NCBI RefSeq assembly: GCF_900103485.1
Contig: NZ_FNHW01000006.1
Coordinates: 1-64,000 of the forward strand
DNA: 64,000 bases
DNA from: Fictibacillus solisalsi
GTDB lineage: Bacteria > Bacillota > Bacilli > Bacillales > Fictibacillaceae
Direction: 5' to 3'
In this document: in pieces, positions 14,285 to 36,739 of the stretch
How the letters are laid out: each line of letters opens with the position of its first letter
How positions within the stretch are numbered: the stretch's first letter is position 1
Made by a program: the position numbers and the translations under genes
Notes under the pieces: generated by a model
The model's input: only the letters and a program-made list of their open reading frames with translations
Databases searched by the model: none
Told to the model about the DNA's origin: nothing

Positions 14285-15961
<1,677 letters not shown>

Positions 15962-17248: not shown

Positions 17249-17270
17249 TTCAATTCCTCCCTTACTTTTC

Positions 17271-19621: not shown

Positions 19622-19665
19622 ATAATTTTCCTCATTTCAGAATCATCTATATTAAATATTATATA

Positions 19666-19770: not shown

Positions 19771-19785
19771 GAAGGAGGTGAAAAA

Positions 19786-19992: not shown

Positions 19993-20022
19993 AAATGCAA
20001 CCTAAGGTTGCTTTTTGTGGAA
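19993..20022 (+). terminator. Hairpin between two small ICE genes
   Basis: AAAAATGCAACC-TAA-GGTTGCTTTTT is a self-complementary hairpin with a T-tract. It is also a near match to the ImmR operator, so it may act as attenuator, operator, or both. Confidence 0.5.
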
Positions 20023-20034
20023 GGAGGAGTTAAT

Positions 20035-20747: not shown

Positions 20748-21143
20748 ATGGAATTGAAATATATCGTACCTGACAAAGAAAAGACTTTTGGAGCAATGAA
20801 TTTCTTAGGATATAACCGGGACCGTTTTCAATATGATCGTGTTAATAATCGCCGTACAGATATTTTAGAAGCCCGTGTTTATAATCTAGGGTCAAGTGGT
20901 CAAGGTGGCCAAATTGAAGTAACTATTCCTGGTGATGTTGAATTGAAGGAATTAGATTTTAATGAACCTGTTGAATTGGTGAACCCTATGATTACTTCCT
21001 CTGCTCAAGCTAATGGGAATTTTGCGACTGTTCGATGGACGGTAACTGCGGATGATATTGTTCCATTAAAATCACGTTCAGCAAATACTGGTTCAAATTC
21101 TGCTTCCAAAACTCTTAATCCATCTGGTGATGATAAAAAATAA
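20748..21143 (+). CDS. helP: HelP-like helicase processivity protein (YdcP family)
   Basis: A 131-residue member of the YdcP/DUF961 family. In ICEBs1 HelP works with the host helicase PcrA to unwind element DNA after nicking by NicK, allowing rolling-circle replication and transfer. The conserved TFGAMNFLGYNR and EVTIPG segments are visible. I choose ATG 20748, 7 nt after GGGG; the ATG at 20730 lacks a site. It is the first transfer gene, 33 nt before conQ. Confidence 0.85.
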   Translation: MELKYIVPDKEKTFGAMNFLGYNRDRFQYDRVNNRRTDILEARVYNLGSSGQGGQIEVTIPGDVELKELDFNEPVELVNPMITSSAQANGNFATVRWTVTADDIVPLKSRSANTGSNSASKTLNPSGDDKK

Positions 21144-21176
21144 GAGAGTATATAGATAGCTGTGAAAGGAGGAATC

Positions 21177-22604
21177 ATGATCTTTGAATTTTTTAAAAAT
21201 AAATTGTGGAAATATAGAGGATCTAGGATTAGGCCTCGAATGAGGAACTCTATAAAAAGAGTGGGCGCTTTTATATTTGCGTCTACTTTTTTTATATCCA
21301 TGTTTATCTTTTGGAAAGATCATTTGTTGTATTCCAAAATACTTGAGATTATAGAAGTATTTAACTGGAATGTTCCTTTGGTTTTAAAAAGCGTTATGTT
21401 CTCTATTTTGATAGGTATAGGGACTGTTGTTGTAGCTTATTTTCTTTTTTATGAATGCCTTAAGAAATTGCTTCATAAACAAAAAATTGCACGAATGATT
21501 TTTTCTAACAAGTTTTACGAAAAAGAAAATATCAGAGTGAAGAAGCTTTTTTCGGATGAAACATATTTGAAAGAAAAAATAACGTATTTCCCTAGAATGT
21601 ATTATAGGGTGAAGAATAATTACATTTATATTCGTATTGGCATGGACATGAGCCGTTTTCAAAATCGTTTTCTGGACTTAGGAAAGGATTTAGAGAACGG
21701 CTTGTTTTGTGACCTTGTTGATCAGGAAATGGAGGAAGGTTTTGTCTGCTTTAAATTGCTGTACGACGTTCGTAAAAACCGTATTTCGATTGATGAGGCA
21801 GTAGCTGAGAATGGGAGTTTCCGTTTGATGAAGCATATTTCATGGCATTTTGATAAGTTGCCCCATATGTTAATTGCCGGAGGAACTGGCGGAGGAAAAA
21901 CTTATTTTATACTGACAGTAATTAAAGCCTGCATTGGTGTTGGTGCAGAGGTGAAAATATTAGATCCCAAGCATGCAGATTTAGCTGACTTGGAAGAAGT
22001 GCTTCCAGGAAAGGTTTTTTCAAAAAAGAACGGCATTCTAATGTGTTTGAGGAAGTCGGTTGATAGCATGATGCAAAGAATGGATGAAATGAAGAAGATG
22101 CCGAATTACAAGACAGGTGTAAACTATGCCTATTTAGGCTTGGAGCCTGTTTTCATTTTCTTTGATGAGTATGTCGCATTTATGGACTTACTGGACATGA
22201 AAGAGAGAAATGAAGCCTTATCCTACATGAAACAATTAGTCATGCTGGGAAGGCAGGCCGGTTACTTTCTAGTTTTAGGGGCGCAGCGTCCAGATGCAAA
22301 ATATTTGGTTGACGGTATTCGTGATCAATTTAGTTTTCGGGTTTCACTCGGATTAATGTCTGAAACAGGTTACGGGATGATGTTTGGTGATTGTGATAAA
22401 GCATTCGTCAATAAAAAAGTAACAGGGCGAGGTTATGCAGACATGGGAACAGGAACTGTATTTGAATTTTACAGCCCTTTTGTGCCTAAGGGATATGATT
22501 TTATGCGAGCGATTGAAAACGAGCTGGTGGGAGTGCAGGAGCGCAGGCGACGGCAGTCGCCAGCGGCAGCGAAAGCGACCAAGCGGAACCAGCAGAAGGG
22601 GTGA
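21177..22604 (+). CDS. conQ: Conjugation coupling protein ConQ (FtsK/SpoIIIE family)
   Basis: A 475-residue membrane-anchored ATPase that delivers the relaxase-DNA complex to the mating channel. Two N-terminal membrane segments (about 23-45 and 68-95) precede a P-loop domain with Walker A IAGGTGGGKT (about residue 230) and Walker B FIFFDEY. ATG 21177 follows AAAGGAGG. The C-terminus is Arg/Lys/Ala-rich. It sits directly before nicK, as in ICEBs1. Confidence 0.92.
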   Translation: MIFEFFKNKLWKYRGSRIRPRMRNSIKRVGAFIFASTFFISMFIFWKDHLLYSKILEIIEVFNWNVPLVLKSVMFSILIGIGTVVVAYFLFYECLKKLLHKQKIARMIFSNKFYEKENIRVKKLFSDETYLKEKITYFPRMYYRVKNNYIYIRIGMDMSRFQNRFLDLGKDLENGLFCDLVDQEMEEGFVCFKLLYDVRKNRISIDEAVAENGSFRLMKHISWHFDKLPHMLIAGGTGGGKTYFILTVIKACIGVGAEVKILDPKHADLADLEEVLPGKVFSKKNGILMCLRKSVDSMMQRMDEMKKMPNYKTGVNYAYLGLEPVFIFFDEYVAFMDLLDMKERNEALSYMKQLVMLGRQAGYFLVLGAQRPDAKYLVDGIRDQFSFRVSLGLMSETGYGMMFGDCDKAFVNKKVTGRGYADMGTGTVFEFYSPFVPKGYDFMRAIENELVGVQERRRRQSPAAAKATKRNQQKG

Positions 22605-22614
22605 GCGTTAGCGA

Positions 22615-23673
22615 ATGACTGAACTACAAATACCCCCCCATGCTAACAGGGGGGTAGTAATCGTAAAAGAAGATAAAGAAAACATTGAAAAGCCTTTAAT
22701 ATCAATGGTTGACTATATTCGAGTTACTTTTAAAACACACGATATTGATTATATTCTTGAAAACGTGGTTCATCTAAGAAAAGATTACATGACTGAAAAG
22801 TCATCCGGTTTTTACGGTTACATTGGAACATTTGAGTTAGATCAAATTAAAGTCTTTTATTCAGCGCTTGACGATAACAGAGGTATTCTTGTAGAAATGT
22901 CAGGTAAAGGTTGTCGCCAATTTGAATCTTTTTTGAAATGTCGTAAAAAAACATGGTTTGATTTTTTTCAAGACTGTATAGAAAACAAGGGTACTTTTAC
23001 ACGCTTCGATTTAGCGATTGATGATAAAAGAACGTATTTCTCTATTCCTGAATTGTTGAAAAAAGCCCAAAAGGGCGAATGTATTTCTAGGTTCAGAAAA
23101 TCCGACTTTAATGGCTCTTTTGATTTAGTCGATGGCGGGTTAGGGGGAACAACCATTTATTTTGGGTCTAAAAAATCAGAAGCGTACCTTTGTTTCTATG
23201 AAAAGAACCATGAGCAGTCAGAAAAATATAATATTCCACTGGAAGAGATCGGCGAATGGAACCGTTATGAGTTACGTTTGAAAAATGATAGAGCGCAAGT
23301 TGCTGTGAAGGCTTTAATCACTCAAAAGAATTTAACGTATATCGCTTTAAAGATCATAAATAATTACGTAAGGTTCGTTGATGCTGACGAAAACATCACA
23401 AGAGAGTATTGGAAAACGAGCCCTCTTTGGTCTGAATTTATAGGCGACGTTGAAAAATTGAGTTTGTATACAAAACCTGATGCAGACTTTTACAGGAAGT
23501 CAAGAAACTGGCTTCAAAATTCATGTGCGCCAACCATGAAAATGGTGTTAGAAGTGGATAAACATTTAGGTTCTACTGATCTATCAGACATGATCTTAAA
23601 TGCTGAAATGTCAGATAAACAAGAAAAAATGTTAGAGGTTTTCTTGGCTGAAATCACTGATATGGTGGTTTGA
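22615..23673 (+). CDS. nicK: Relaxase NicK
   Basis: A 352-residue relaxase of the Rep_trans (pT181 replication initiator-like) family. It nicks oriT, stays on the 5' end, and pilots the strand into the recipient; it also starts rolling-circle replication of the excised element. Visible segments are VDYIRVTFKT, FYGYIGTFE, FTRFDLAIDD and GEWNRYELRLK. Its own 5' coding region contains the oriT inverted repeat. The gene starts 10 nt after conQ, without a strong separate promoter. Confidence 0.93.
   Translation: MTELQIPPHANRGVVIVKEDKENIEKPLISMVDYIRVTFKTHDIDYILENVVHLRKDYMTEKSSGFYGYIGTFELDQIKVFYSALDDNRGILVEMSGKGCRQFESFLKCRKKTWFDFFQDCIENKGTFTRFDLAIDDKRTYFSIPELLKKAQKGECISRFRKSDFNGSFDLVDGGLGGTTIYFGSKKSEAYLCFYEKNHEQSEKYNIPLEEIGEWNRYELRLKNDRAQVAVKALITQKNLTYIALKIINNYVRFVDADENITREYWKTSPLWSEFIGDVEKLSLYTKPDADFYRKSRNWLQNSCAPTMKMVLEVDKHLGSTDLSDMILNAEMSDKQEKMLEVFLAEITDMVV
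22632..22655 (+). promoter_or_regulatory. oriT: Origin of transfer (oriT)
   Basis: A 7-bp inverted repeat ACCCCCC (22632-22638) and GGGGGGT (22649-22655) with a 10-nt loop (catgctaaca), inside the first codons of nicK. From memory this is the same arrangement and almost the same sequence as the ICEBs1 oriT, where NicK cuts within the loop side of the repeat. The nick position itself cannot be read from sequence. Confidence 0.9.
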
Positions 23674-24028
23674 AAGTTTTGAAAAGTAGGAGAGTTAACT
23701 TAATCTGTTTTAATCTTTCCTTGTTTTAGGGTGAGGATGGTTGGGGTGTGGGGGTTATCCCCCTCATAGCGTGAATGAATATGGATAAAGGACCATTCTA
23801 TGAACGGTAGCTCTGGCGGTTCGGTGGGTATAATAAATTGAGTAAGTCGACTACTTCAACTCCTCGTTTTAGGTATGTCGGCTTGGCGACAATTTAGCAC
23901 CTACCGAATTTCGGAAAGCAAGGGGAAAAGAGTGGAGATTTTTTTGAGCGATAGCGTTCCAAAGGACAAAAAAATACTACTCGGCCCTTGCTTGGAGAAA
24001 AGCTTAAGGTCATGAAAGGGGAGATTGT
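23674..24028 (+). other. Non-coding region with probable single-strand origin (sso)
   Basis: 355 bp without a gene, just after nicK, where ICEBs1 has sso1. The part 23846-23998 holds AGCAAGGG (23917-23924) and its complement CCCTTGCT (23985-23992) forming a long hairpin. The unpaired region contains TAGCGT (23952-23957), which resembles the CS-6 primer-start box of rolling-circle plasmid sso elements. Smaller hairpins (tgtcggcttggcgaca, gaatttc) lie upstream. Function: to prime complementary-strand synthesis by host RNA polymerase after transfer (inference). Confidence 0.65.
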
Positions 24029-24295
24029 ATGTTCTATGTAAATATAATTAATCGTGCATACCTTGAAAGCGAATTAGAGCGTCATGGGCTTATGGATTTA
24101 GCAGAAGAATTAATTGAGAGAGTAATAGAAAATGTATCCCAATATGATGTATATGAAAGAATTCCTATTTATGTTGTTTCTGTTGTGAATGATGTTCTTA
24201 AGAAGGTGCATGCCCAATTTAATATTCTTGAAAATGAGGGTGAGGAAGAACAGATGAAACTTGTTGAATTTGAGACATTAACCCTTTCAGAATAA
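24029..24295 (+). CDS. Hypothetical small ICE protein
   Basis: An 88-residue soluble, acidic protein with no motif I recognise; helices dominate (ELIERVIENV, VVNDVLKKVHAQF). AAAGGGGAG precedes the ATG. Its place between nicK and conB corresponds to the small ydcS/ydcT/yddA genes of ICEBs1. Function unknown. Confidence 0.7.
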   Translation: MFYVNIINRAYLESELERHGLMDLAEELIERVIENVSQYDVYERIPIYVVSVVNDVLKKVHAQFNILENEGEEEQMKLVEFETLTLSE

Positions 24296-24319
24296 AGTGA
24301 ATGGTGGTGTTTAAACTCT

Positions 24320-24637
24320 ATGACTGCTATTGACAGGGAGTTTAAACGACTAGGTTTCAATGTTGGCATTTCGTTGAAAGTATTTGTCAGAAGTATAAGT
24401 AAAGACTGTATCTTGGTGGTGGAAGGCTCTAGATTAAAAGGATTTTCGGAATATCGTTATACGTTTTATAAAACAAAGCATTTGCCAGATGGTCGAATGA
24501 CGTGTCTAAAAGTTTATATGGAGAATGAAAGTATAAGAAGGGTGTTACCATACGTAGCATCCTTTTTATCATTCTTAGAAAGAATCAAACAGATTAAAAA
24601 GAAGGAGTGTGAAGAAGTTGCTTCAAAAGGAAAATGA
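24320..24637 (+). CDS. Hypothetical small ICE protein
   Basis: A 105-residue basic protein, mixed alpha/beta in appearance, with no recognised domain. Its 3' end overlaps the start of conB by about 20 nt, which suggests coupled translation. By position it corresponds to yddA of ICEBs1. The ribosome site is weak (GGTGGT). Confidence 0.65.
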   Translation: MTAIDREFKRLGFNVGISLKVFVRSISKDCILVVEGSRLKGFSEYRYTFYKTKHLPDGRMTCLKVYMENESIRRVLPYVASFLSFLERIKQIKKKECEEVASKGK

Positions 24638-25682
24638 GTCTGAAAAAAAAGAAGAATCTTTCTTTCGCGCTGTTCATCAAAAATTAAACCGAGTAAAAAA
24701 ACCAGGAAAAGCAAAGAAAGTAGTACCTAAAGATCGCTCGAAAATGGTTGCAGTGACATTATGGGCCTTACTTTCTTCCCTTCTAATATTTTCTCTTTTG
24801 GCTGTTCTACTTTCTGTGAATACACGCTCAGTTATAAATGAAGTAAGAAGAGATTTTAATAAGCCGACAGAAGATGAACAAATACAAATGTCAGTTACAG
24901 CAGCTGAAAATTTTTTATCAGGGTTTATTCATGAATATGTCAATGTGAAAAACGATATGGATTCCATTGAACAAAGGAAAGAGAAGTTGGAAAGTTATAT
25001 GGTTACTAAGGTTGATGGAATTTTTGAAGATGAAAGGAGGTATGATCTAACTGGACTAAAAGGGAATCGTATATTGAATGAATACAACTTGTATAACGTC
25101 AAGAAAGAAAAAGGTTATAACCTTTTTCAATATAAAGTGAACTATACTAATCAGTTTCCAGTGGAAAAAGAAGTGGAGAAAACGGTGAAAGATGGAAAGA
25201 AGGAAAAGAAAGTGAAAGAAAAGGTTATGGAGATTCAAGAAGCAGAAAAACAACTATTATTGAATATTCCTGTAGCGAATAAAGGAGATGCTTTTGCGGT
25301 CAATGCTGTTCCATATTTCACACGGATTTATGATTTAAAAGGAAAAATAATCTCTTTTAAAAAGGAGCATACGAGGGAGGAATATACCGGCTCGAAAAAA
25401 GAGTCTATCGAAAAGTTCTTGCAATCCTTCTTTGAGAAATATGCCTCCCAAAAGAAGGAAGATATGGTTTATATGATGAAAAAGCCAGAATCATTACAAG
25501 ACAGTTTGTCTTTCGGTTATGTAGAGAATGTGAAAATCTTCGAAACGAAAAAAGGCTTTGAAGTTTCTTGTGATGTGGAGTTTAAAGAAAAAGAGAATGA
25601 GATTCCAGTAAAAGAACCCTTCACATTAGAACTGACGGAAACTAGTGGGCAGTTTTATGTAAAAGATCTTAAACACCAATAA
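24618..25682 (+). CDS. conB: Conjugation channel protein ConB (VirB8/TcpC-like)
   Basis: A 354-residue bitopic membrane protein with a charged cytoplasmic N-terminus, one membrane helix (about 47-70) and two extracytoplasmic NTF2-like domains, the layout of TcpC/ConB. It is a structural part of the Gram-positive type IV secretion channel. I choose TTG 24618, 10 nt after GGAG; the GTG at 24609 lies on the ribosome site. conC follows 12 nt later. A lysine/glutamate-rich insert near residues 190-215 looks like a flexible loop. Confidence 0.85.
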   Translation: MLQKENESEKKEESFFRAVHQKLNRVKKPGKAKKVVPKDRSKMVAVTLWALLSSLLIFSLLAVLLSVNTRSVINEVRRDFNKPTEDEQIQMSVTAAENFLSGFIHEYVNVKNDMDSIEQRKEKLESYMVTKVDGIFEDERRYDLTGLKGNRILNEYNLYNVKKEKGYNLFQYKVNYTNQFPVEKEVEKTVKDGKKEKKVKEKVMEIQEAEKQLLLNIPVANKGDAFAVNAVPYFTRIYDLKGKIISFKKEHTREEYTGSKKESIEKFLQSFFEKYASQKKEDMVYMMKKPESLQDSLSFGYVENVKIFETKKGFEVSCDVEFKEKENEIPVKEPFTLELTETSGQFYVKDLKHQ

Positions 25683-25694
25683 GGAGGAGAAAAA

Positions 25695-25940
25695 ATGGAT
25701 CTATTGGTTATTTTAAATGCTACTAACCTGCCTGATTTGAGTGGTGTCGAAACTTGGGGTAAAACGGTTGTTGTACAGTTTATTACCATTGTTGTTATGT
25801 TTATTGCTGCTAAACATGTAATGAAACTGAAATTAGGTGGCGTTCTTGCAGTATGCTGTGTTGGAGGTGCTGTTACTTGGATTATTCAGCACTGGTCTAA
25901 ATTTTCGGGATGGATTGAGGGTTTCATGAATGGTATGTAG
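25695..25940 (+). CDS. conC: Conjugation protein ConC (TcpD-like)
   Basis: An 81-residue membrane protein with two hydrophobic segments, preceded by AAGGAGGAG. Size, topology and position between conB and conD match ICEBs1 ConC. Its function in the channel is not well known, and in ICEBs1 it is dispensable as far as I recall. Confidence 0.75.
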   Translation: MDLLVILNATNLPDLSGVETWGKTVVVQFITIVVMFIAAKHVMKLKLGGVLAVCCVGGAVTWIIQHWSKFSGWIEGFMNGM

Positions 25941-25949
25941 GAGGACGAT

Positions 25950-26477
25950 ATGATGGGTCGCTTCGTCTTTAATTATCGTAAGGCAATGAGAGAACCGAAA
26001 AAAATTCGACAATTAACGGAGCATTATTCCTTGCCTTTCTCGATTGAGCTGATACCTGCGCTGAACTATTTTATTTTTGTTGGACTTTGTTTTGGCTTTT
26101 GGTATGGTGTGAGGATGGTATTTCCTAATGCTTTTGATAAAACATTTATTCTTGTGATATTTGGGATTCCATTGCTTTTCACAACCTTGGTTACAAAAAT
26201 AAAACCAGAAGGAAAAAATATTTATTTATACTTTTTTGATTTGATAAAGTATTATTTCATGATTAAACTTCCTCAAAAAAAGTTTTGTAATGATCGTAAA
26301 GTTGAATTTAGTTATGATGAAGAAATTGAATTTCGCAAATTAGTAAAGGTGGTGGGCATTTCGAATGAAAACAAAAACCCCTATGAAGGCTACACACAAA
26401 AATTTATTGTTGACAAGAACGGGAGACATTTGGGCGTATTACCGAGTGAGAAGCAATTCGATACCTATGCAGAATAA
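25950..26477 (+). CDS. conD: Conjugation protein ConD (TcpE-like)
   Basis: A 175-residue membrane protein with a soluble N-terminus, two hydrophobic segments (about 36-55 and 62-82) and a soluble C-terminal half. It matches ConD/TcpE of the Gram-positive mating channel. AGGAGG lies before the ATG pair at 25950. Its last 113 nt also encode the start of ConE in another frame. Confidence 0.82.
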   Translation: MMGRFVFNYRKAMREPKKIRQLTEHYSLPFSIELIPALNYFIFVGLCFGFWYGVRMVFPNAFDKTFILVIFGIPLLFTTLVTKIKPEGKNIYLYFFDLIKYYFMIKLPQKKFCNDRKVEFSYDEEIEFRKLVKVVGISNENKNPYEGYTQKFIVDKNGRHLGVLPSEKQFDTYAE

Positions 26478-28860
26478 GGAAAAGGTGAATTCTTATAAAA
26501 AGAGATGGAAACATTTATTCGAAGAAATTACATCTTATGAGGACTTTCATTTGATGATGTATCCAAGTGAATACGAATTAGAAAAGCGATTTAAGGATTT
26601 AGAAACAGATATTGCAGAAGATGCTATTGACTTGGCTTGTTACTACAATGAGGAAACAGTAAGGCTATTGGAACAACGGTTAGGAAGGTTAACAAAGTAT
26701 GATTTCATTTTTGGTGTAAAACTGAAAAATAGCCTTGTAAACATCAGTATGGAAGTAAAGGAAAATTTATTATCTCTTTTTAATACGGCGACTGATACAG
26801 TCGTCAAAATGCTTGGGTGGGAACAAAACGTTCCCACCTCTTTTTTTGGAAAGTATGAGGAGGTTGAAGAGACATTAGCCAATATTATGGCTTCTGTTTG
26901 CGGTGAAAGGCTTTCTGAAAATGAAATGGTGTATATCAACCGTTATCATTTCATTCGTGGTTTAAAGCACCAAACAAAGGAAGAAAGTGAAATGAAAAAG
27001 GTTGATTCGATTACAAATACGATTATAGACCCTACAAACCCCTCTGTTTTAAACCTTCATAGTGATCAAGATGAAGGTTATTCGTCATTCGTTGTCATTG
27101 ATGAGTTTCTTCATAACATGGCAGAAAGTGATTTGTTTTATGAAGCCCAATCGTTGCCGTTTCCAGTTGAAATACAAATGAAAGTGCAAGTGGAGTCAAA
27201 ATCCTTAACGAAAACCGCATTAAATATAAAGAAACAACAATTAAAGGAAGAACAATGGGAACAACATAGCACAGGAGATAGAAGTGACGTGTCAACCGTT
27301 ACCAGTGCCACAATGGTAAGGCATTTACAAGACGAGATTAAGAAAGAAGAAGTGTTCTTGATGAATTGGCTAGCAGTTATTGTGGTTCATGGAGACACGA
27401 AAAAGGAATGTGTTAGGAAGGCTACAATTGTAAGGCGTCATTTGAAAGGGGCTGGAATCACCTGTAGACTTCCTGTTGCTGACCAATTGAATTTGTTTTA
27501 TAAAATGTTGCCAGGTGAAAAATTAGACATTACGGATAAGAATTGGGTTCAAAAAACAACTCAAGATGGGTTGGCTGAATGTTTATTCGCCGTCAATTCT
27601 GATGTCGGTTCTAAAATAGGCTTCTTTCTTGGATGGGTGGATCGTTTTATAGAACATACCGATTTAGAGAGTGCAATTTATTCGAGTCGGGATTTTGTGT
27701 TATTTCACCCATTTTTAGCAAATCAGCAATTGAAAGGTTCAAAAACACGTTCGCCGCATTGTTTGATTACAGGGGATACAGGAAACGGGAAATCCTATTT
27801 GGCTAAATTGATTTTTAACTATATCACTATGCTAAACGTGAAATCCCTTTACATTGACCCAAAAAAAGAGATGCGTAAATGGATTCGACAAGTCTTAAAT
27901 GATCAAGAAATCCTTAAAAAATTCCCTTTATATATCTCTCATCTAGAGAAATATCACTATATCACGTTAGATCATCAAGATAAACAGAATTGGGGGGCAT
28001 TGGACCCTATTTCTTTTTTGCCTCCGATGAGAGCGAAAGAATTAATCGAGGTGATTTTTGAACAGATATACGATTTTAAAGGGAAAGATGATGTAAGTAC
28101 AGCGTTTCTTAAGGCAACTTCAAATGTGATTGAGCGTAAAGAAAGAGGCGAAAAAGTCGGCTCGCTCCATATCATTAGAGAAATGCAAAATCATGAAGAA
28201 TTAGCTGTAAGAAAAGCAGGCGATTACTTGAATGAAGTAGCTGCTGATTCAATTTTAAAATTATGTATTCATGACGGTTCTAATCCGGCGTTGTCATTAA
28301 AAAGACGGGTTACCATTTTAGAAGTAGAAAATATGGATTTACCGGAACAGTCAGAGCGATTCGAAAACTATACAAAATCTCAATTGAAATCAAGTGCTGT
28401 CATGTTTGCACTAGGCAAGTTTTGTGAACTGTTCGGTATGAATCCAGAGGAACAAACTGTTGAATTTATTGATGAAGCGTGGATATTTACAACATCTCCG
28501 CAAGGGAAAAAAGTAGAAAGACAAATGCGTAGGATTGGTCGATCATACAACAATGCAGAATATTTTATTTCGCAGTCAACAAAGGACGCTTTAAAAGAGG
28601 AGGATTCAGGAAACTTTGGGGTGGCTTTTGCTTTTGATGAACCAACAGAACGTGAAGAAGTGTTGAAATGGGTGAACATGGAGGTAACAAAAGAAAATAT
28701 AAAAATGATGGAATCGATGTTCCAAGGGCAATGCTTGTTTAAAGATTATTATGGTCGTACTTCCAAGATTTCAATTGAGTGCCTTTTTGAAGAATGGGAA
28801 GGTACATTAAAGACTGTTGAGAAAAAAGCAGTGGCATTTGCAGAGGAAGAGTATATTTAA
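26365..28860 (+). CDS. conE: Conjugation ATPase ConE (VirB4-like)
   Basis: An 831-residue ATPase that powers the mating channel from the cytoplasmic face. The P-loop is GDTGNGKS (about residue 473) and the Walker B region is VEFIDEAWIF; the N-terminal VirB4 domain begins NLLLTRTGDIWAYYRV. That homology starts inside the conD overlap, so the upstream ATG 26365 (with GGTGGTGGG before it) is preferred over ATG 26467. The 113-nt overlap with conD is long. Confidence 0.92.
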   Translation: MKTKTPMKATHKNLLLTRTGDIWAYYRVRSNSIPMQNKEKVNSYKKRWKHLFEEITSYEDFHLMMYPSEYELEKRFKDLETDIAEDAIDLACYYNEETVRLLEQRLGRLTKYDFIFGVKLKNSLVNISMEVKENLLSLFNTATDTVVKMLGWEQNVPTSFFGKYEEVEETLANIMASVCGERLSENEMVYINRYHFIRGLKHQTKEESEMKKVDSITNTIIDPTNPSVLNLHSDQDEGYSSFVVIDEFLHNMAESDLFYEAQSLPFPVEIQMKVQVESKSLTKTALNIKKQQLKEEQWEQHSTGDRSDVSTVTSATMVRHLQDEIKKEEVFLMNWLAVIVVHGDTKKECVRKATIVRRHLKGAGITCRLPVADQLNLFYKMLPGEKLDITDKNWVQKTTQDGLAECLFAVNSDVGSKIGFFLGWVDRFIEHTDLESAIYSSRDFVLFHPFLANQQLKGSKTRSPHCLITGDTGNGKSYLAKLIFNYITMLNVKSLYIDPKKEMRKWIRQVLNDQEILKKFPLYISHLEKYHYITLDHQDKQNWGALDPISFLPPMRAKELIEVIFEQIYDFKGKDDVSTAFLKATSNVIERKERGEKVGSLHIIREMQNHEELAVRKAGDYLNEVAADSILKLCIHDGSNPALSLKRRVTILEVENMDLPEQSERFENYTKSQLKSSAVMFALGKFCELFGMNPEEQTVEFIDEAWIFTTSPQGKKVERQMRRIGRSYNNAEYFISQSTKDALKEEDSGNFGVAFAFDEPTEREEVLKWVNMEVTKENIKMMESMFQGQCLFKDYYGRTSKISIECLFEEWEGTLKTVEKKAVAFAEEEYI

Positions 28861-28874
28861 GGAGGGGGGTAGTG

Positions 28875-30782
28875 ATGAAAAGAAAAAGGATTCTTTTGCT
28901 TTCAGTTGTAATTTTGTTATTGGCTTCATTCATTAAGACGGATTCAGTGTTGGCGGCAGAAGGTGATATAACCACTCAACCTAAAAGTGAAAAGGTGGGT
29001 GGTGTTGAATTAGAAGTAAAGCGATTTCCTTTATCTCGTTACCAAGCAAATAACGAGGATTCCGATAGTCATATAAAAGGGGCATTTGTAGGTTTGACAA
29101 ACGTCACTTTTTCTTTTGCAGGGAATATTATACGTGTCGTTGATGCAGGTATGGATACTTTGTATAATCTCCAACCAATTGATAAATTTGCGGATTCGAT
29201 GACGAATGTATCGAAAACAGTATATAAAACATTAAAAAGTAATTTTGGAGAAGTGCTTTTTATTTTTGTTTGTGGCTATATTGTCTATCTATATGCGGTA
29301 AGAGGAAGCGCAAAGGAAGCTATGAGACGGAGTACCCTCTTTATTTGTGTGTTGGTTATTGGTGGACTATGGATGTCCAACGCTGGTTATTATATGAAGG
29401 TTCTGAATGCATTGTCAGTTGAAACACAAGGGAAGTTATTAGTTGCCGGTAATGGATTTGTTGGCATCGTGAAAGATGAGGGGAATTACGTTAATAACTC
29501 AAAAATTGAAAAAGGAAAAGAAATGGAAGGTACGGTAGCGATTATGCGTAATGTTTACTTTAATCTGGCATTAAAAAAACCGTACTTAATTGTAAATTAT
29601 GATGAAACGAGTGAAAAGAAAATAAACAAAAAAGGAAGTGGTGAAAAAGGTGATTTAAATCGAATCGATACACTTCTATCTTATAAATTATCGGATGAAG
29701 GTGAAAAGGGAAAACTTGAATACTTAAAGGAATACGAGAAAGGGAAATACGGTAATGAAGCTGTAACTTCTGGAAATGTTTATAACCAGTTAGGTCAATC
29801 TATTATCGCAGTGTTGGTAGCTTTTGTATTGGGCATTCCTTTTCTAGGGTTGGCGTTTCTAAATTTCTTCCTTCAAATCATGGCACTAGCGATTGTGTTT
29901 TTTATTCCTTTTGCTTTTATGATTTCGTATATTCCTCAACTTGCCTATTCTGGTTTTGTTACTTTAGGACGGCTTGGGAGTGTTTTTCTTCTTAAAGCAA
30001 TGTTGGGCATCTTAATTTTCTTTGTATATGTGATGTGCTTTGTCGTAGATCAATTGATACCCCCGAATGGATTCGGAATGTATCTGTTAAATGTCATTGT
30101 GTTGTCCGCCATATTGTGGATTGGATTTAAAAAGAGAGATTCCATTATCAAGTTTGTAACGGCAGGAAAAGTGTTATCAATTGATAATAATATGATGGAA
30201 AATGTACGAAAAGAAATGGTTCAACCTTCGTGGGAAACGGCGAAGAAAGGTGCGACTACTTTAGGGTCGGGTGTGTCGAATATGTTCAGTCATTTTGCAA
30301 AAAGTTTTCGTAATAGGTCGGGAGATGTCGGCTCTGATGATGGTGTTTCAAAGGATGCATCTGCCGGACGCGAATTTGGGATAGATGGCGATGCTGTTAC
30401 TCTTTCAAGGACACCTCAAAAAGGAGAAACATTTAATAATCCAAATCTAAATGGAAATAAAAAAATTGACCGAAAACCGCAATATTTATTTAAGCAGGAT
30501 CATCAACAATCCATACCACCCGGTGATGTTTATCATCCTCAAGGGAAGAAAGAGCTTAGACATGAAGGAACGAAGACGCCTGTTGTGGATACTATTCTTA
30601 AAGAAGGAGTGTACAAGGTTACGAGATCAACAGGCTTGCAAGAGAAAATAAGGGAAAATCGAACAGATCAGAAAGAATTTAGTAAAAGAAAACAATTTGA
30701 GAATAGATCGAACGGATTTAAACCGCAGGGTGATTCAGAAATACAAATAGTAGATAGACTGAGAAGGGGCGAAAGAACATGA
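28875..30782 (+). CDS. conG: Conjugation membrane protein ConG (VirB6-like)
   Basis: A 635-residue polytopic membrane protein. A cleavable or anchoring N-terminal hydrophobic segment (about 6-23, ending VLAAEG) is followed by membrane helices near 115-165 and a cluster at 300-430, then a long polar C-terminal tail. This is the ConG layout, the probable central channel subunit. ATG 28875 follows GGAGGGG. conE is 14 nt upstream and cwlT 22 nt downstream. Confidence 0.88.
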   Translation: MKRKRILLLSVVILLLASFIKTDSVLAAEGDITTQPKSEKVGGVELEVKRFPLSRYQANNEDSDSHIKGAFVGLTNVTFSFAGNIIRVVDAGMDTLYNLQPIDKFADSMTNVSKTVYKTLKSNFGEVLFIFVCGYIVYLYAVRGSAKEAMRRSTLFICVLVIGGLWMSNAGYYMKVLNALSVETQGKLLVAGNGFVGIVKDEGNYVNNSKIEKGKEMEGTVAIMRNVYFNLALKKPYLIVNYDETSEKKINKKGSGEKGDLNRIDTLLSYKLSDEGEKGKLEYLKEYEKGKYGNEAVTSGNVYNQLGQSIIAVLVAFVLGIPFLGLAFLNFFLQIMALAIVFFIPFAFMISYIPQLAYSGFVTLGRLGSVFLLKAMLGILIFFVYVMCFVVDQLIPPNGFGMYLLNVIVLSAILWIGFKKRDSIIKFVTAGKVLSIDNNMMENVRKEMVQPSWETAKKGATTLGSGVSNMFSHFAKSFRNRSGDVGSDDGVSKDASAGREFGIDGDAVTLSRTPQKGETFNNPNLNGNKKIDRKPQYLFKQDHQQSIPPGDVYHPQGKKELRHEGTKTPVVDTILKEGVYKVTRSTGLQEKIRENRTDQKEFSKRKQFENRSNGFKPQGDSEIQIVDRLRRGERT

Positions 30783-30804
30783 TGAGTAGAAAGGAGAGAT
30801 TTAC

Positions 30805-31785
30805 TTGAAAAAAATCTTTCTTGTATTCTTGTTGTCCCCTGTTATTTGTTTGATGATCATGTGTACTGTTGTTGTCATGATAATGTCTGGGGACCATGAG
30901 ATAGAAAATGATAAGATAGGCGGTGGTGATGGTGATTATATAACGAACAGTATAAGTCTTGAAGTAGAACGTTTTCGTACTGTTTTTGAAAAATATGCTC
31001 GTCAAGAAGGAGTCTATAATCAATTAAATGTCATTATGGCGCTCACCATGCAGGAAAGTGGTGGGCGCTATTTAGATATCATGCAAAGTTCGGAAAGTAT
31101 TGGTTTACCTCCAAACAGCATTACTGACCCGGAATTATCCATTAAGATTGGTGTAAAATACTTTGCCAGTATGTTAAAACAAGCAGACTATGATGTTCAT
31201 CTAGCCCTTCAATCGTATAATTTCGGAAATCGCTTTATCGGATATGCAAAGGAACGAGGGGGCTATTCAAAAAAAGTGGCTCAATCCTTTAGTAGTATGA
31301 TGGCTGTTAAAATGGGCTGGTCTCGATATGGTGATCCTGATTATGTAGATCATGTTATGCGTTATCTGAAAAGTTCAAATCATACTTTTAAACTTGTGAA
31401 TGGTTCGATAAAGGAGTATGAAATAGCCATGAAAGAAGCTTCGAAATATGAAGGGCAGCCATATGTTTGGGGGGGCTCTAATCCGAGTGATGGTTTTGAC
31501 TGTAGTGGATTAACACAATGGAGTTATAAACAATCAGGAATTCTTTTGCCAAGAACGGCGCAAGAACAATATTACAGGTCGAAACGGGTTGATGAACAAG
31601 ATGCCAAAGCAGGCGATCTTGTTTTTTTTACGGGGACATATGCAGGTAAATATATTACCCATGTTGGTATATATGTAGGTGAGGGCAGGATGTTTAACTC
31701 TAATGGTAGTGGGATTCAATACTCTAATCTTAAATCCGGTTACTGGCGAGAACATTTGGTTTCATTCGGGAGAATTAATAATTAA
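30805..31785 (+). CDS. cwlT: Bifunctional cell-wall hydrolase CwlT
   Basis: A 326-residue exported enzyme with an N-terminal membrane anchor (about 1-28), a lysozyme-like lytic domain (about 50-185, with the catalytic Glu in TMQESGG) and an NlpC/P60 endopeptidase domain (about 205-326) with Cys in DGFDCSGLT and His in THVGIYVG. It opens peptidoglycan so the channel can be built, and is essential for ICEBs1 transfer. The start is TTG at 30805. Confidence 0.93.
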   Translation: MKKIFLVFLLSPVICLMIMCTVVVMIMSGDHEIENDKIGGGDGDYITNSISLEVERFRTVFEKYARQEGVYNQLNVIMALTMQESGGRYLDIMQSSESIGLPPNSITDPELSIKIGVKYFASMLKQADYDVHLALQSYNFGNRFIGYAKERGGYSKKVAQSFSSMMAVKMGWSRYGDPDYVDHVMRYLKSSNHTFKLVNGSIKEYEIAMKEASKYEGQPYVWGGSNPSDGFDCSGLTQWSYKQSGILLPRTAQEQYYRSKRVDEQDAKAGDLVFFTGTYAGKYITHVGIYVGEGRMFNSNGSGIQYSNLKSGYWREHLVSFGRINN

Positions 31786-31798
31786 GGAGTGATAACAG

Positions 31799-32317
31799 TT
31801 GAATAAGTTAATTGTTATTTTGACTTGTGGCGTTTTATTGATTGGATACACTTTTTTTATTAAAGGGATTACTGGACTTTCTTATAATGAAAAAATAGAA
31901 TCATTGAATAAACAAAATGTGATACAAAAGAAAAAAATAGAAGAATTGAGTCAAACGATGAATGAAAGAAGCGTTTCGAAAAATAGAGCATTTTTTGAAG
32001 CGCTTTTTAATTACACTGATATAGATAAGCGCTATGAAAAAGTACAGAATTTGACAACTGAAAAAGGTTTTGCTTTTGCTTTTCCTTCAAGAAGTGATCA
32101 AAAGCATACAGTGAGTGTAAAAAGCGAATTGTTGTCATTGGAGAATTATTCAAAGATTGATGGTTCTGGTTCGAATGAATTGTTTCTTAATGTTGTTGAG
32201 GTAGCTGTCACAGCAAATTCTGTGACAACCAATCAAACGTTAATTATACAAACGTCCTTGATAAAAGAAAAAAATAAATGGCTGGTTGATGATGTACAGG
32301 TGAAAGGAAATGGATGA
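31799..32317 (+). CDS. YddI-like conjugation-operon protein
   Basis: A 172-residue protein with one N-terminal membrane helix (about 5-22), a short coiled-coil-like stretch (about 32-58) and an extracytoplasmic domain that looks NTF2-like. It begins with TTG 31799 after AAGGAGTGA, 13 nt after cwlT. Position matches yddI of ICEBs1; role unknown, probably part of or near the channel. Confidence 0.7.
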   Translation: MNKLIVILTCGVLLIGYTFFIKGITGLSYNEKIESLNKQNVIQKKKIEELSQTMNERSVSKNRAFFEALFNYTDIDKRYEKVQNLTTEKGFAFAFPSRSDQKHTVSVKSELLSLENYSKIDGSGSNELFLNVVEVAVTANSVTTNQTLIIQTSLIKEKNKWLVDDVQVKGNG

Positions 32318-32373
32318 AACATGGAAAATAAAGAATAGATTATATATACTGAATATTAAAAAGGGAGGGCATC

Positions 32374-32757
32374 ATGACATTGAAAAGAATTTTTATTTTC
32401 CTTAGTCTTATCATGATAGTTGTTCTAAGTGCTTGTGGTGGGAATAAGTATGATGAAGCGATTGATAATGTAATTAATCAAGAAAAAAAAGATCGTGAAA
32501 AAGATGGGCTGGATGCAAAAAAAATATCCAGAGACAATGCTAACATACGTGTTTATGATGGCGGTAAGTTTATTCAAGTAGCTTATTATATAGATGATAC
32601 AGATCGTAAACTTTATTATTATTATGAAAAGCTTGGGGATTCGTATGAGGAAATGAGTGATATGCCGGGAAGTGGAGAAGGTGATCGCTTGGGCCTAGAT
32701 AAGAAAACGCCAGATTATCAAGAAGTTAAGGGAAAAGAAACAAAGATAGAAGAGTAG
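32374..32757 (+). CDS. YddJ-like exclusion lipoprotein
   Basis: A 127-residue lipoprotein: basic N-terminus, hydrophobic core and lipobox LSAC with the lipidated C21, then an acidic soluble domain of the DUF4467 kind. In ICEBs1 YddJ sits on the cell surface and blocks redundant transfer into cells that already hold the element, acting on ConG of the donor. GGGAGGG precedes the ATG. It is the last gene of the transfer operon before cargo. Confidence 0.78.
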   Translation: MTLKRIFIFLSLIMIVVLSACGGNKYDEAIDNVINQEKKDREKDGLDAKKISRDNANIRVYDGGKFIQVAYYIDDTDRKLYYYYEKLGDSYEEMSDMPGSGEGDRLGLDKKTPDYQEVKGKETKIEE

Positions 32758-33435: not shown

Positions 33436-34392
33436 ATGGAAATGAATAAAAGACAAGTATATAAATGTAAAACTTGTCAAAAAGAAACGAATGCTCCTTT
33501 AGGTACTGAAAGAGAAAAAAAAATGTTATGTAAAGATTGTTTTGGTAAACGAAAAGATAAAAGGAAAAATCAATTAAATGGTTTAACAGGTAGTGAGTGG
33601 GCAAAAAAAAGTATTAGTGTAAAAGAATACCCAGATGTTAGAAGTGAAAAACAACGCATTCATGGAGCCAGCTTTCCAAAATCTTTAGCTAAAGAACATA
33701 TTGAAATTTACACTAAACAAGGAGATGTAGTCCTTGACCCATTTTTAGGTGTGGGAACAACTGTCGATGCTTGTTTAGAATTAGGTAGAAATTCTGTTGG
33801 AATAGAATTAAACCAAGAATTTATAACTTTAGCACAAGAAGACTTAACTGAACTGGATAAATTATCTGCTAAGATTTTTCATGGAGATAGTCGGAACTTA
33901 ACTAAATTTGTTGATGAAGAGAGCATTGATTTTATATTAACGAGTCCACCTTATGCTAATTTATTGCAAAATATTAACGGAGCCTTTGCTCATAAGTGGA
34001 GAGAGCATTCAGATTTAGACCCAATTACTAATGCAAGGCCGTATTCTAAGAATGAATCCGACATTGGTAATATGTCTTATAATGAATCTCTACTATCAAT
34101 AAGAAAAGTAATGGAAGAGTGTTTTATTGTACAAAAATTCGAAACTTATGCAGTATGGGTTGTGAAAGATTTTAGATCATTAAAGGAATCTGTACCCTAT
34201 GTTAATTTTCACGGCGACGTTATAAGAGCTGCTGAAGATGTGGGATATTATTTATGGGATATAAGGATTTATGATCAAACTAAGTTTCGCCCTCTAGTTG
34301 TACTGGGATACCCTTCAAGGAATTATTATATGAATATAGGGCATTCTTATATATTAGTTTTTAAAAAAACAAATAAATTACCAAAAAGGTGA
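33436..34392 (+). CDS. DNA methyltransferase, TSPPY type, with zinc-ribbon N-terminus
   Basis: A 318-residue DNA methyltransferase. The SAM-binding motif I is DPFLGVGTT (101-109) and the catalytic motif IV is TSPPY (169-173), which is typical of N4-cytosine and some N6-adenine enzymes. The N-terminus adds a zinc-ribbon-like knuckle pair: C11-x2-C14 and C32-x2-C35. ATG 33436 follows AAAGGTGA; a TTG at 33397 is possible but unsupported. It overlaps or abuts the next methyltransferase (GTGA), so the two are co-translated. Together with the PLD nuclease downstream it forms a restriction-modification cargo. Target sequence unknown. Confidence 0.88.
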   Translation: MEMNKRQVYKCKTCQKETNAPLGTEREKKMLCKDCFGKRKDKRKNQLNGLTGSEWAKKSISVKEYPDVRSEKQRIHGASFPKSLAKEHIEIYTKQGDVVLDPFLGVGTTVDACLELGRNSVGIELNQEFITLAQEDLTELDKLSAKIFHGDSRNLTKFVDEESIDFILTSPPYANLLQNINGAFAHKWREHSDLDPITNARPYSKNESDIGNMSYNESLLSIRKVMEECFIVQKFETYAVWVVKDFRSLKESVPYVNFHGDVIRAAEDVGYYLWDIRIYDQTKFRPLVVLGYPSRNYYMNIGHSYILVFKKTNKLPKR

Positions 34393-34397
34393 CAAAT

Positions 34398-35531
34398 ATG
34401 CAAATGATTCAGAAATTCAAGATGGATTTAGATAATATTTTAAAAACTGAAAAGGCTAATTTAACTCATAATTTTCACCCTTATCCTGCAAAATTTATAC
34501 CTCAAATGCCAAGAGAAATAATGAATTATCTTAATATAACCAAAGGTTCAAAAATCTTAGATCCTTTTTGTGGTTCTGGTACTACCTTAGTTGAAGCATG
34601 TTTATTAGGTATAGATTCTGTAGGTGTGGATTCAAATCCAATAGCAATATTATCAAGTAAAGTTAAAAGTACACCTCTAAATGAAAATCAACTGTCAACA
34701 TTAGACTCTTTTTTAAATTCTTTAATGTTACAAAAAGCAAACGTGGATTATGAAATTGCTGATGAAAAACTTAATAATTTCAAAAATAGAGATCATTGGT
34801 TTGAAAGAAATATGTTTATTGAACTAATGTATATAAAGGGTTTAATCTCAACACTTGATGATATTCAAGTAAAAGATTTTTTTAGATTGGCATTATCTTC
34901 TATTGTTGTTAAGTGTTCAAATCAAGATAGTGATACACGTTGGGTTGCGAGGAGCAAGGATTTACCAAATGGCTATGCATTTGATTCTTTTATTAAGAAG
35001 TCAAATGATATGATAAATAGAATAAAAGAATTTAGTAATGCACAAAAAGGCATTTCTCAAGTTTTCTATGGTGATTCTAGGAATTTATCTTTTTTAGAGA
35101 ACAATGTTATTGATCATATAATAACATCTCCACCGTATTTAAACTCATTTGATTATTACTTATATCATAAACTAAGGATGTTCATATTGGGCTATGACCA
35201 TAAAGAAGCTCAAGAATTAGAAATCGGTTCACGAAATAAACATAATGATAAAAAGCATGGAATGAATACTTATTTTGATAGTATAAAAGAGGTATTTACA
35301 GAAAGTTATCGTGTTCTAAAACCGAATGGAATATGTTGTGTAGTTATTGGAGATTCCATTGTAAAATCTGAACTGGTAGAAATGGATAAAGAGTATAGAA
35401 GAGTTTTTGAAGATATTGGTTATGAATATATAGAATGTTTTTCATATAATCAACGTAAATATACTAATTCCTTTACAAAAAATCTTAAAACTCAATACAA
35501 GAATGGACATTTTATATTTTTTAAAAAATAA
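34398..35531 (+). CDS. DNA methyltransferase, TSPPY type
   Basis: A 377-residue DNA methyltransferase with motif I DPFCGSGTT (55-63), preceded by FHPYPAKFIPQMP, and motif IV TSPPY (243-247). Between them lies a long helical insert, a probable target-recognition region. Starts at ATG 34398 after AAAAAGGTG; a GTG at 34389 overlapping the previous stop is the alternative. Two different methyltransferases beside one nuclease suggest an asymmetric target with one enzyme per strand, as in type IIS systems. Confidence 0.87.
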   Translation: MQMIQKFKMDLDNILKTEKANLTHNFHPYPAKFIPQMPREIMNYLNITKGSKILDPFCGSGTTLVEACLLGIDSVGVDSNPIAILSSKVKSTPLNENQLSTLDSFLNSLMLQKANVDYEIADEKLNNFKNRDHWFERNMFIELMYIKGLISTLDDIQVKDFFRLALSSIVVKCSNQDSDTRWVARSKDLPNGYAFDSFIKKSNDMINRIKEFSNAQKGISQVFYGDSRNLSFLENNVIDHIITSPPYLNSFDYYLYHKLRMFILGYDHKEAQELEIGSRNKHNDKKHGMNTYFDSIKEVFTESYRVLKPNGICCVVIGDSIVKSELVEMDKEYRRVFEDIGYEYIECFSYNQRKYTNSFTKNLKTQYKNGHFIFFKK

Positions 35532-35543
35532 ACATTGGTAATA

Positions 35544-35607
35544 TTGAACTACTCCTATTTTTGGTATAAAATTACTATTATTATAGTTAATTTTAGGAAA
35601 TAGGAGT
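35544..35607 (+). promoter_or_regulatory. Endonuclease promoter inside an inverted repeat
   Basis: Promoter TTGAAC (35544-35549), 17 bp, TAAAAT (35567-35572). A perfect 10-bp inverted repeat flanks it: ACTCCTATTT (35551-35560, in the promoter spacer) and AAATAGGAGT (35598-35607, covering the ribosome site). A read-through mRNA from the methyltransferases could fold and hide the endonuclease ribosome site, while mRNA from the local promoter lacks the first arm. It could also be a protein operator. Both are inference. Confidence 0.65.
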
Positions 35608-35614
35608 GTTTTTA

Positions 35615-36739
35615 TTGAACGTCAAAATAATTTCACAACCAATTAGTAATTCTGTGGGGTCTATTATAAATGACTTGGCAAAAGAAGATTGGAATTCATT
35701 CTATTGTATGGTAGCTTATGCAAAATCAAGTGGTGTATTGAGAATAGAACCATCGATAAGAGAATTAAAAGATAAAGGTACTAAATGTTATTTTGTTGTT
35801 GGTATCGATCAAAAAAATACTTCATATGAGGCATTAGAACAATTACATGAACTAGTTGATGAATTATATATTTATCATAATGAAGATATTAATAGTACCT
35901 TTCATCCTAAAATATACCTTTTTGAAAATGATGAAAAAGCTGTAGTTATTGTTGGCTCCAACAATTTAACTGGGGGAGGTTTATACACAAATAATGAGCA
36001 AAGTATAGAGTATTCTATGGATTTACGTTTAAAAGAAGACCTGCTTAATTATCAAATGTTACTAGATACCTATAAAATGTACTCAAATGAACAGTCTGAG
36101 TTATCAAATAGAGTAGATTTGAATTTTTTAAAACAACTAAATGATAATAACTATACGGAAAAGGAATACCAATTAGAAAAACAACGAAAAAGAAAAATGA
36201 ATATTATAAGAGAAAAATTGTTTGGTTTTATTAGAGTAATACCCCCAAAGTTACCAAAGAAAAAAAATATGGAATCCACCAGTAAAGTACTAGGTAAGGA
36301 AAGAAAAGTTAATTATAAAATTTTACATGAAGGATTTTGGAAAAGGTTAAGTAAGTGGGATGTATCTCCAACAAGTGCACCTGGACAAATTGTTATACCG
36401 ATTCGTTTTATGCCATTATTTCCGAATTTCTCTGGACTTTTACCAACTCCTATGCAAGCTCAACAGGAAGAAGTTTACTTCAATGTACTTTTCATTGATG
36501 AAGACGGTACTCAAATTTTACTAAAGAATACTCGAGCGATTCATTATGTACCTGCAGCAACACATGGTAGACCAAATCCTGAGTTGAGATTTACTTTTTT
36601 AAATAAAAAGGTATTTAATGTGTTTAAAAAAGATGATGTTTTAGCATTTTATAAAACGGATGAGGAAAATATTGAGTTTATAATCAAACGAAATCCCACA
36701 CTCGCGGAAAATGGAAAAAAATTCGGCTTTTTTGAATGA
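35615..36739 (+). CDS. PLD-family restriction endonuclease (NgoFVII/BfiI-like)
   Basis: A 374-residue nuclease. The N-terminal domain (about 1-200) has a single phospholipase-D active site: H97 and K99 in FHPKIYLF, then GSNNLTGGG (114-122). Such enzymes dimerise to make one active site and need no metal. The C-terminal domain (about 225-374) would bind DNA; it ends GKKFGFF, which recalls the B3-like domain of BfiI (comparison from memory). Starts at TTG 35615 after ATAGGAG; GTG 35606 lies on the ribosome site. It has its own promoter, separate from the two methyltransferases, which allows methylation before cutting. Confidence 0.82.
   Translation: MNVKIISQPISNSVGSIINDLAKEDWNSFYCMVAYAKSSGVLRIEPSIRELKDKGTKCYFVVGIDQKNTSYEALEQLHELVDELYIYHNEDINSTFHPKIYLFENDEKAVVIVGSNNLTGGGLYTNNEQSIEYSMDLRLKEDLLNYQMLLDTYKMYSNEQSELSNRVDLNFLKQLNDNNYTEKEYQLEKQRKRKMNIIREKLFGFIRVIPPKLPKKKNMESTSKVLGKERKVNYKILHEGFWKRLSKWDVSPTSAPGQIVIPIRFMPLFPNFSGLLPTPMQAQQEEVYFNVLFIDEDGTQILLKNTRAIHYVPAATHGRPNPELRFTFLNKKVFNVFKKDDVLAFYKTDEENIEFIIKRNPTLAENGKKFGFFE

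What the first reader, a model, noticed from the sequence alone, without database searches (positions are those of the whole stretch)
33436..36739. Two TSPPY methyltransferases plus a PLD-fold nuclease as ICE cargo
The single HxK...GSNN active site, the separate C-terminal domain and the GKKFGF ending point to the NgoFVII/BfiI kind of metal-independent restriction enzyme. Two different methyltransferases beside it suggest an asymmetric recognition site. One has a fused four-cysteine zinc knuckle. This would protect the host from phage and stabilise the element by post-segregational killing. The target site may be new.
Basis: partly seen in the sequence, partly recalled or inferred. Interest (0 to 1): 0.82.

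Follow-up and report, generated by a model that had tools for sequence, protein, structure and literature searches.

The report
BfiI-like restriction system inside an ICE
A bacterial mobile element carries two DNA-marking enzymes and a DNA-cutting enzyme of a known but uncommon sort, probably to attack invading DNA; it is mostly ordinary, with an unusual possible switch that could hold back the cutter.

Summary
Window 33436-36739 encodes two TSPPY methyltransferases (M1, with an N-terminal CxxC-x17-CxxC motif, and M2) and a PLD nuclease (R) with a single HPK...GSNN site. They lie at the right end of a 22.0-kb ICEBs1-like element whose ends I place at an 18-bp repeat of the groEL 3' end. Best reading: a Type IIS-like restriction-modification cassette of the BfiI/NgoFVII kind. 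R's N-terminal domain passes the NgoFVII Pfam cutoff and a nine-row family profile matches BfiI. All 13 full-length R relatives that I kept have a methyltransferase gene within about 3.5 kb, 11 as next gene. R's C-terminal half is unmatched by sequence, so its fold, target and activity stay open; structure prediction failed. Two oddities: M1's cysteine motif was absent from 19 of 19 M1 relatives, and R's ribosome-binding site is paired with a perfect 10-nt arm, which might delay R. Against this, hairpins before pvuIIR had no significant effect when tested (PMC2997769). New member of a known kind; moderate-to-low interest.

The parts
33436..34392 (+). M1: amino-methyltransferase, motif I before TSPPY, with N-terminal CxxC-x17-CxxC motif (residues 11-35)
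   Evidence: PF01555 2.9e-29; motif positions
34398..35531 (+). M2: amino-methyltransferase, motif I and TSPPY about 190 residues apart
   Evidence: PF01555 4.4e-20; motif positions
35544..35572 (+). promoter-like site TTGAAC-17-TAAAAT, spacer holds the 5' arm of the inverted repeat
   Evidence: 9 of 12 consensus matches; such sites are no commoner here than in shuffles (35 against a mean of 32.4)
35551..35607 (+). perfect 10-nt inverted repeat: ACTCCTATTT 35551-35560 and AAATAGGAGT 35598-35607; the right arm contains R's AGGAG
35615..36739 (+). R: PLD-fold nuclease (N-terminal domain) with an unmatched C-terminal half (from about residue 221)
   Evidence: PF09565 6.2e-6 and PF13091 3.2e-7; profile match to BfiI 9.9e-13; C-terminus
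15944..15961 (+). left attachment repeat, last 18 bases of groEL with its stop codon
37960..37977 (+). right attachment repeat, same 18 bases
16058..17302 (-). tyrosine integrase of the element
   Evidence: PF00589 1.6e-23
18601..32757 (.). ICEBs1-like backbone: ImmA- and ImmR-like genes, DUF961, FtsK-like, Rep_trans relaxase, TcpC, TcpE, AAA_10 ATPase, lysozyme/NlpC-P60 protein, DUF4467 lipoprotein
   Evidence: the FtsK-like match is just below its Pfam cutoff

Best explanation
A mobile restriction-modification cassette of the BfiI/NgoFVII kind, carried as right-end cargo of an ICEBs1-like element integrated at the groEL 3' end. M1 and M2 would each methylate one strand of a non-palindromic site. 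R would dimerise to form one metal-independent PLD active site, bind the unmethylated site through its C-terminal half and cut nearby. The effect would be defence against phage and plasmid DNA, with addiction to the element as a side effect. Gene order M1-M2-R, and a hairpin that hides R's ribosome-binding site in transcripts reading in from M2, would favour methylation before cutting after conjugative entry. Shown: genes, domains, active-site motif, element ends, the inverted repeat and its predicted pairing, and the methyltransferase neighbourhood of R's relatives. Inferred: DNA binding by the C-terminus, one strand per methyltransferase, cleavage, timing and benefit.
For: R: RE_NgoFVII and PLDc_2 above cutoff; family profile to BfiI 9.9e-13 and R.NgoVII 0.0068; hhalign to a BfiI orthologue 96.3% over 142 N-terminal columns. 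Two distinct methyltransferases directly upstream. Of 13 full-length R relatives kept, a methyltransferase is the next gene in 11 and lies within about 3.5 kb in the other 2; in 3 of them it is one protein with two TSPPY motifs. A BfiI orthologue (3.5e-145) follows two methyltransferases on plasmid pVL1_4, the first 32% identical to M2. Element ends: exact 18-bp repeat. Hidden ribosome-binding site: fold -23.3 kcal/mol, z -3.14; 2 of 420 genes, R included, have such an arm.
Against: The C-terminal half matches no known DNA-binding family by sequence; BfiI_DBD is not matched. R alone reaches BfiI only at E 0.31. The profile also matches a PLD-helicase at 1.7e-11, and PADLOC's best R match is DrmC, 4.4e-8, so the N-terminal domain alone does not prove a Type II enzyme. 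No structure was obtained. The leader's energy is not itself rare: 99 of 420 leaders fold as stably or better. Tested hairpins before pvuIIR had no significant effect (PMC2997769).
Confidence: 0.7

Rival explanations
1. R is the PLD-B3 subunit of an ATP-dependent CglI/NgoAVII-type enzyme that needs a helicase-like partner.
For: R.CglI is described as a PLD nuclease with a B3-like DNA-binding domain (PMC5737866, passages); the R family profile matches R.NgoVII 4rct at 0.0068.
Against: No open frame of helicase size lies between 32758 and 38283 (frames of 60 aa or more); the match to BfiI is much stronger. A partner elsewhere in the genome was not sought.
Confidence: 0.08
2. M1 and M2 are solitary methyltransferases (for example protecting the element from host restriction) and R is a separate PLD effector, for instance a nuclease that acts on modified DNA or in abortive infection.
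For: PADLOC lists DrmC, ZacB and a Type IV enzyme above any Type II enzyme for R. R has its own promoter-like site and an 84-base gap from M2. M1-type genes often occur without R: 31 of 398 phylum genomes have M1 relatives, but only the own genome has a full-length R relative in the profile search of 398 phylum genomes at E up to 1e-15.
Against: 11 of 13 kept R relatives have a methyltransferase as next gene.
Confidence: 0.13
3. About the inverted repeat only: it is a DNA operator (for M1's cysteine domain or another protein) or a weak terminator between M2 and R, not an RNA switch; or it is inert.
For: The half-site occurs exactly only twice in 32600-38000, astride the possible promoter. The right arm is followed by GTTTTT. 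RBS-occluding hairpins before pvuIIR proved inert (PMC2997769).
Against: The arm covers the Shine-Dalgarno core exactly and pairs it fully, which only 2 of 420 genes do, R included. No exact copy of the half-site lies upstream of M1 in 32600-33436. The terminator scan did not list it, but its loop limit of 8 bases excludes it by design.
Confidence: 0.5

Closest known systems
BfiI / BmrI (Type IIS, ACTGGG)
   Same: N-terminal PLD nuclease with one HxK site per chain, second half C-terminal to it, ending GK(K/R)FG(F/Y); two methyltransferases upstream in the BfiI-type locus of pVL1_4
   Different: R is no orthologue: E 0.31 alone, BfiI_DBD not matched; M1 is of another methyltransferase branch with a cysteine motif
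NgoFVII family (PF09565; GCSGC enzymes)
   Same: R passes the Pfam cutoff of the N-terminal PLD domain; the review names NgoFVII and AspCNI as PLD-type enzymes (PMC4081073, passage)
   Different: match covers residues 38-150 only; site unknown; two different methyltransferases here
CglI / NgoAVII (ATP-dependent PLD-B3)
   Same: PLD nuclease; weak profile match to 4rct, 0.0068
   Different: no helicase-like gene beside R
ICEBs1 with the anti-phage gene spbK
   Same: backbone type; anti-phage cargo sought among constitutive genes toward the ends of the element (PMC8880864, abstract and passages)
   Different: spbK is a TIR abortive-infection gene; here a restriction cassette; groEL as integration site (ICEBs1's tRNA-Leu site is recalled, from no call)

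Membership tests
PLD-type restriction endonuclease (BfiI/NgoFVII) | PLD nuclease domain with a single HxK...GSxN motif per chain | tested here: met
   HPK 97 only, GSNN 114; PF09565 and PF13091 above cutoff
PLD-type restriction endonuclease (BfiI/NgoFVII) | C-terminal B3-like DNA-binding domain | tested here: inconclusive
   No BfiI_DBD match for residues 221-374, no PDB match; only a co-linear, non-significant stretch of the family profile on BfiI 238-344, i-E 22. Fold prediction failed
BfiI orthologue | full-length similarity to BfiI including PF18243 | tested here: not met
   contrast L051, 3.5e-145 and 2.1e-70
Type II RM system for an asymmetric site | nuclease gene beside one or two methyltransferase genes | tested here: met
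   M1-M2-R, gaps as; families
Type II RM system for an asymmetric site | methylation of each strand of a non-palindromic site; cleavage of unmethylated DNA | not testable with these tools
   needs methylome and cleavage assay
BfiI-type enzyme | cleavage without metal or ATP | not testable with these tools
   needs biochemistry
CglI/NgoAVII-type enzyme | helicase-like ATPase gene beside R | tested here: not met
   no such frame in 32758-38283
ICEBs1-like ICE | integrase, ImmA/ImmR-like regulators, relaxase, coupling protein, VirB4-like ATPase and cell-wall hydrolase between att repeats | tested here: met
   the FtsK-like match is just below its cutoff

The most novel reading that the evidence does not exclude
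The cassette uses a two-transcript timing device. After conjugative entry, transcripts from the methyltransferase genes read into R but hide its ribosome-binding site in a 10-bp stem. R is translated well only from its own promoter, whose spacer is the stem's 5' arm, so that this transcript lacks the arm. M1's cysteine motif, absent from the relatives checked, binds the inverted repeat and gates that promoter, so that the first methyltransferase doubles as the controller of a PLD endonuclease with a new DNA-binding domain and a new target site.
Probability: 0.12. Interest if true: 0.6.

Novelty: new member of a known kind. Interest (0 to 1): 0.36.

Why it matters
The review describes BfiI as very unusual among studied Type IIS enzymes, with over 40 putative PLD-type relatives (PMC4081073, passages). 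One with an unmatched recognition half could have a new target site and a metal-independent cut. A restriction system on an ICE must methylate host and element DNA before R appears; the hidden ribosome-binding site offers a directly testable way to do so without a controller gene. The find also suggests that restriction-modification is among the defence cargo at the ends of ICEBs1-like elements.

Tried and rejected
Close relatives of R: the single-protein scans, which use short exact peptide patterns and so reach close relatives only, gave none in genome contigs or viral contigs; tblastn gave none in phages. M1 alone gave none in genome contigs. In the searches of 60 relatives and 398 phylum genomes all listed matches other than R itself are open frames of 614-1071 aa, except three short ones (L018-L020) that I did not examine; I take the long ones to be PLD-helicase proteins, from frame length only, and set them aside.

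R-relative count: kept 13 (L021, L022, L023, L024, L025, L026, L027, L028, L029, L053, L054, L055, L061). Dropped: repeat fetches of the same contigs (L052, L059, L060, L062, L063, L064); L056 and L065, of another architecture and without a methyltransferase motif among their frames of 150 aa or more, so counting them too would give 13 of 15; L057 and L058, short matches, not examined; and seven plasmid records not fetched (H68, H69, H71-H75). L051 was found through M2, not R, and is not counted.

Profile route: A1 was too divergent for a genome-contig scan. Target-site prediction was not attempted; I had no relative with a known site. Conservation of the inverted repeat could not be tested for want of close relatives. 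The promoter call is no stronger than chance. Co-transcription with the conjugation genes seems unlikely because terminator-like stems at 32751-32776 and 33166-33185 lie between, but this was not tested.
Full report
What is there. Three genes lie head to tail: M1 33436-34392, M2 34398-35531 and R 35615-36739. M2 starts six positions after M1's last base and R starts 84 positions after M2's last base. M1 and M2 match the DNA methylase family PF01555 (2.9e-29 and 4.4e-20); R matches PLDc_2 and the NgoFVII PLD domain above both cutoffs. M1 has cysteines at 11, 14, 32 and 35, a CxxC-x17-CxxC spacing; the zinc-family matches are all below their cutoffs. R has a single HPK and GSNN and ends GKKFGFFE.

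Where it is. The element's left end holds a tyrosine integrase on the minus strand, then ImmA- and ImmR-like genes, DUF961, an FtsK-like protein, a Rep_trans relaxase, TcpC, TcpE, an AAA_10 ATPase, a lysozyme/NlpC-P60 protein and a DUF4467 lipoprotein: the anatomy of ICEBs1 (gene order recalled). An exact 18-bp repeat, the last bases of groEL with its stop, occurs at 15944-15961 and 37960-37977 and nowhere else in the window, which gives a 22.0-kb element. Relatives of the integrase at E up to 1e-60 occur in 11 of 34 genomes of the family, own included; in the two others whose flanks I compared, the integrase also follows groEL. The RM genes have 29.0% G+C against 34.8% for the backbone and 47.1% and 43.0% for the left and right flanks. 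A decayed relative in genome G021 matches the window up to 32786, with no blastn match to the RM genes in the 30 kb compared, so these genes look like exchangeable cargo. Terminator-like stems at 32751-32776 and 33166-33185 lie between them and the conjugation genes. In ICEBs1 the anti-phage gene spbK was sought among constitutively expressed genes toward the ends (PMC8880864, abstract and passages).

What R is. Alone R reaches BfiI only at E 0.31. A profile of R and eight viral-contig relatives reaches BfiI (2c1l) at 9.9e-13, a putative helicase (7clg) at 1.7e-11 and R.NgoVII (4rct) at 0.0068. hhalign with a BfiI orthologue gives 96.3% over 142 N-terminal columns. PADLOC's best matches for R are DrmC (4.4e-8), ZacB and a Type IV enzyme, with Type II enzymes weaker (2.8e-4, 0.0096), a result against a confident Type II label from the nuclease domain alone. 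The C-terminal half is the open question: no match in Pfam, PDB, 72,556 plasmid records or 397 genomes of the class other than its own; a profile of five relatives' C-termini does not recover it. Only the family profile shows a second, co-linear but non-significant stretch (i-E 22) on BfiI 238-344. BfiI_DBD is not matched, whereas the Methylobacterium orthologue matches it at 2.1e-70. R is thus a PLD-type enzyme by nuclease domain and context, not an orthologue of BfiI. The structure job was interrupted and a new one was not accepted.

Context of R's relatives. Of 13 full-length relatives kept, the next gene is a methyltransferase in 11 (L021, L022, L024, L026, L027, L028, L029, L053, L054, L055, L061); in L023 and L025 one lies within about 3.5 kb. 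In L054, L055 and L061 it is a single protein of 923-990 aa with two TSPPY motifs. Two further PLD loci of other architecture, L056 and L065, had no methyltransferase motif; the other rows dropped are in Tried and rejected. Plasmid pVL1_4 of Methylobacterium indicum (L051) holds a BfiI orthologue (3.5e-145) after two methyltransferases, the first 32% identical to M2. M1 relatives at E up to 1e-25 occur in 31 of 398 phylum genomes, own included. Among 19 M1 relatives whose loci I read, an M2-like gene follows in L043 and L047 and the start of one in L126; the third gene of L047 matches a PADLOC Type II enzyme (5.1e-67), and the gene before M1 in L043 matched nothing. I saw the trio of an M1-like gene, an M2-like gene and a PLD gene only in the window. 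None of the 19 has a CxxC-x(8-25)-CxxC motif.

How it likely works. M1 and M2 would each protect one strand of an asymmetric site and R would cut unprotected DNA. The Type II review (PMC4081073, passages read) says that BfiI is a homodimer with one catalytic site at the interface and a B3-like C-terminal domain, that PLD-type enzymes are far from rare, with over 40 putative ones, and that many enzymes with asymmetric sites come with one or two methyltransferases that each modify one strand. That makes this cassette a further member, with the target unknown.

Control of R. Before R lie ACTCCTATTT (35551-35560) and its exact complement AAATAGGAGT (35598-35607), which contains R's AGGAG. The leader folds at -23.3 kcal/mol, z -3.14; 1 of 200 shuffles folds as well. 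A script took 420 genes with a Shine-Dalgarno motif from 617 kb of the same genome: 2 of 420, R included, have a complementary arm of at least 10 nt, and 2 of 420, R included, have the motif paired as fully; but 99 of 420 leaders fold at least as stably, so it is the pairing of the motif, not the energy, that is rare. A promoter-like site TTGAAC-17-TAAAAT has the 5' arm in its spacer; a transcript from it would lack that arm, and predicted pairing of the five bases falls from 1.0 each to 0.14-0.80. The promoter is weak evidence, since such sites are as frequent in shuffles. For PvuII, disrupting hairpins that could occlude the pvuIIR site had no significant effect, and 9 of 11 C-dependent systems had such predicted hairpins (PMC2997769, abstract and passages). 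The idea is therefore not new in kind; the stem here is longer than the PvuII one of -4.6 kcal/mol, though folded over a longer stretch.

Rivals. A CglI-type enzyme lacks its partner gene here (PMC5737866, passages). Solitary methyltransferases beside an unrelated PLD effector are disfavoured, not excluded, by the neighbourhood of R's relatives. The inverted repeat could be an operator, a weak terminator or inert.

Literature scope. Searches on BfiI with phospholipase D (15 of 16 listed), ICEBs1 with RM cargo (15 of 17), RM with Shine-Dalgarno hairpins, NgoFVII (10 of 12), ICEBs1 with groEL, BfiI with BmrI and methyltransferase, spbK (8 of 10), PLD endonuclease with ICE and zinc finger with RM methyltransferase listed no paper that, by title and start of abstract, describes a BfiI-like system on an ICEBs1-like element. 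I read only the passages named above, so this is no proof of absence from print.

Verdict. An intact-looking BfiI/NgoFVII-like RM cassette on an ICE whose ends I could place. It is mostly ordinary; the unmatched recognition half, the cysteine motif and the hidden ribosome-binding site are the parts worth a bench test.

Noticed in passing
17271-18359 (-): 362-aa frame overlapping the integrase start, with two LGWIYSDGN/LGIFDGNG-like motifs that recall LAGLIDADG homing endonucleases (recalled; no Pfam match at E 0.001).
   Followed up: partly
39677-39703 and 16064-16090: A 27-bp exact repeat of the integrase 3' end lies outside the element, beyond attR; it may be a remnant of a second, related integrase.
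   Followed up: partly
L096, L097 (genomes G003, G031): Integrases of the same family sit after groEL in two other genomes of the family, and L096 has a second partial groEL match at 17002-17149: the groEL 3' end looks like a recurrent insertion site.
   Followed up: partly
L023:7074-8318 and L026:8066-9319: EcoRI-type methyltransferases with an N-terminal RelB-like domain beside PLD nucleases; the plasmid record labels the first a RelB/DinJ antitoxin.
   Followed up: no
37446-37649: 67-aa acidic frame with a good ribosome-binding site between R and attR; no Pfam or PADLOC family, two weak sub-cutoff NCBIfam matches.
   Followed up: no
L091 near base 10793: The only other of the 420 genes with a long complement of its Shine-Dalgarno region (15 nt).
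   Followed up: no
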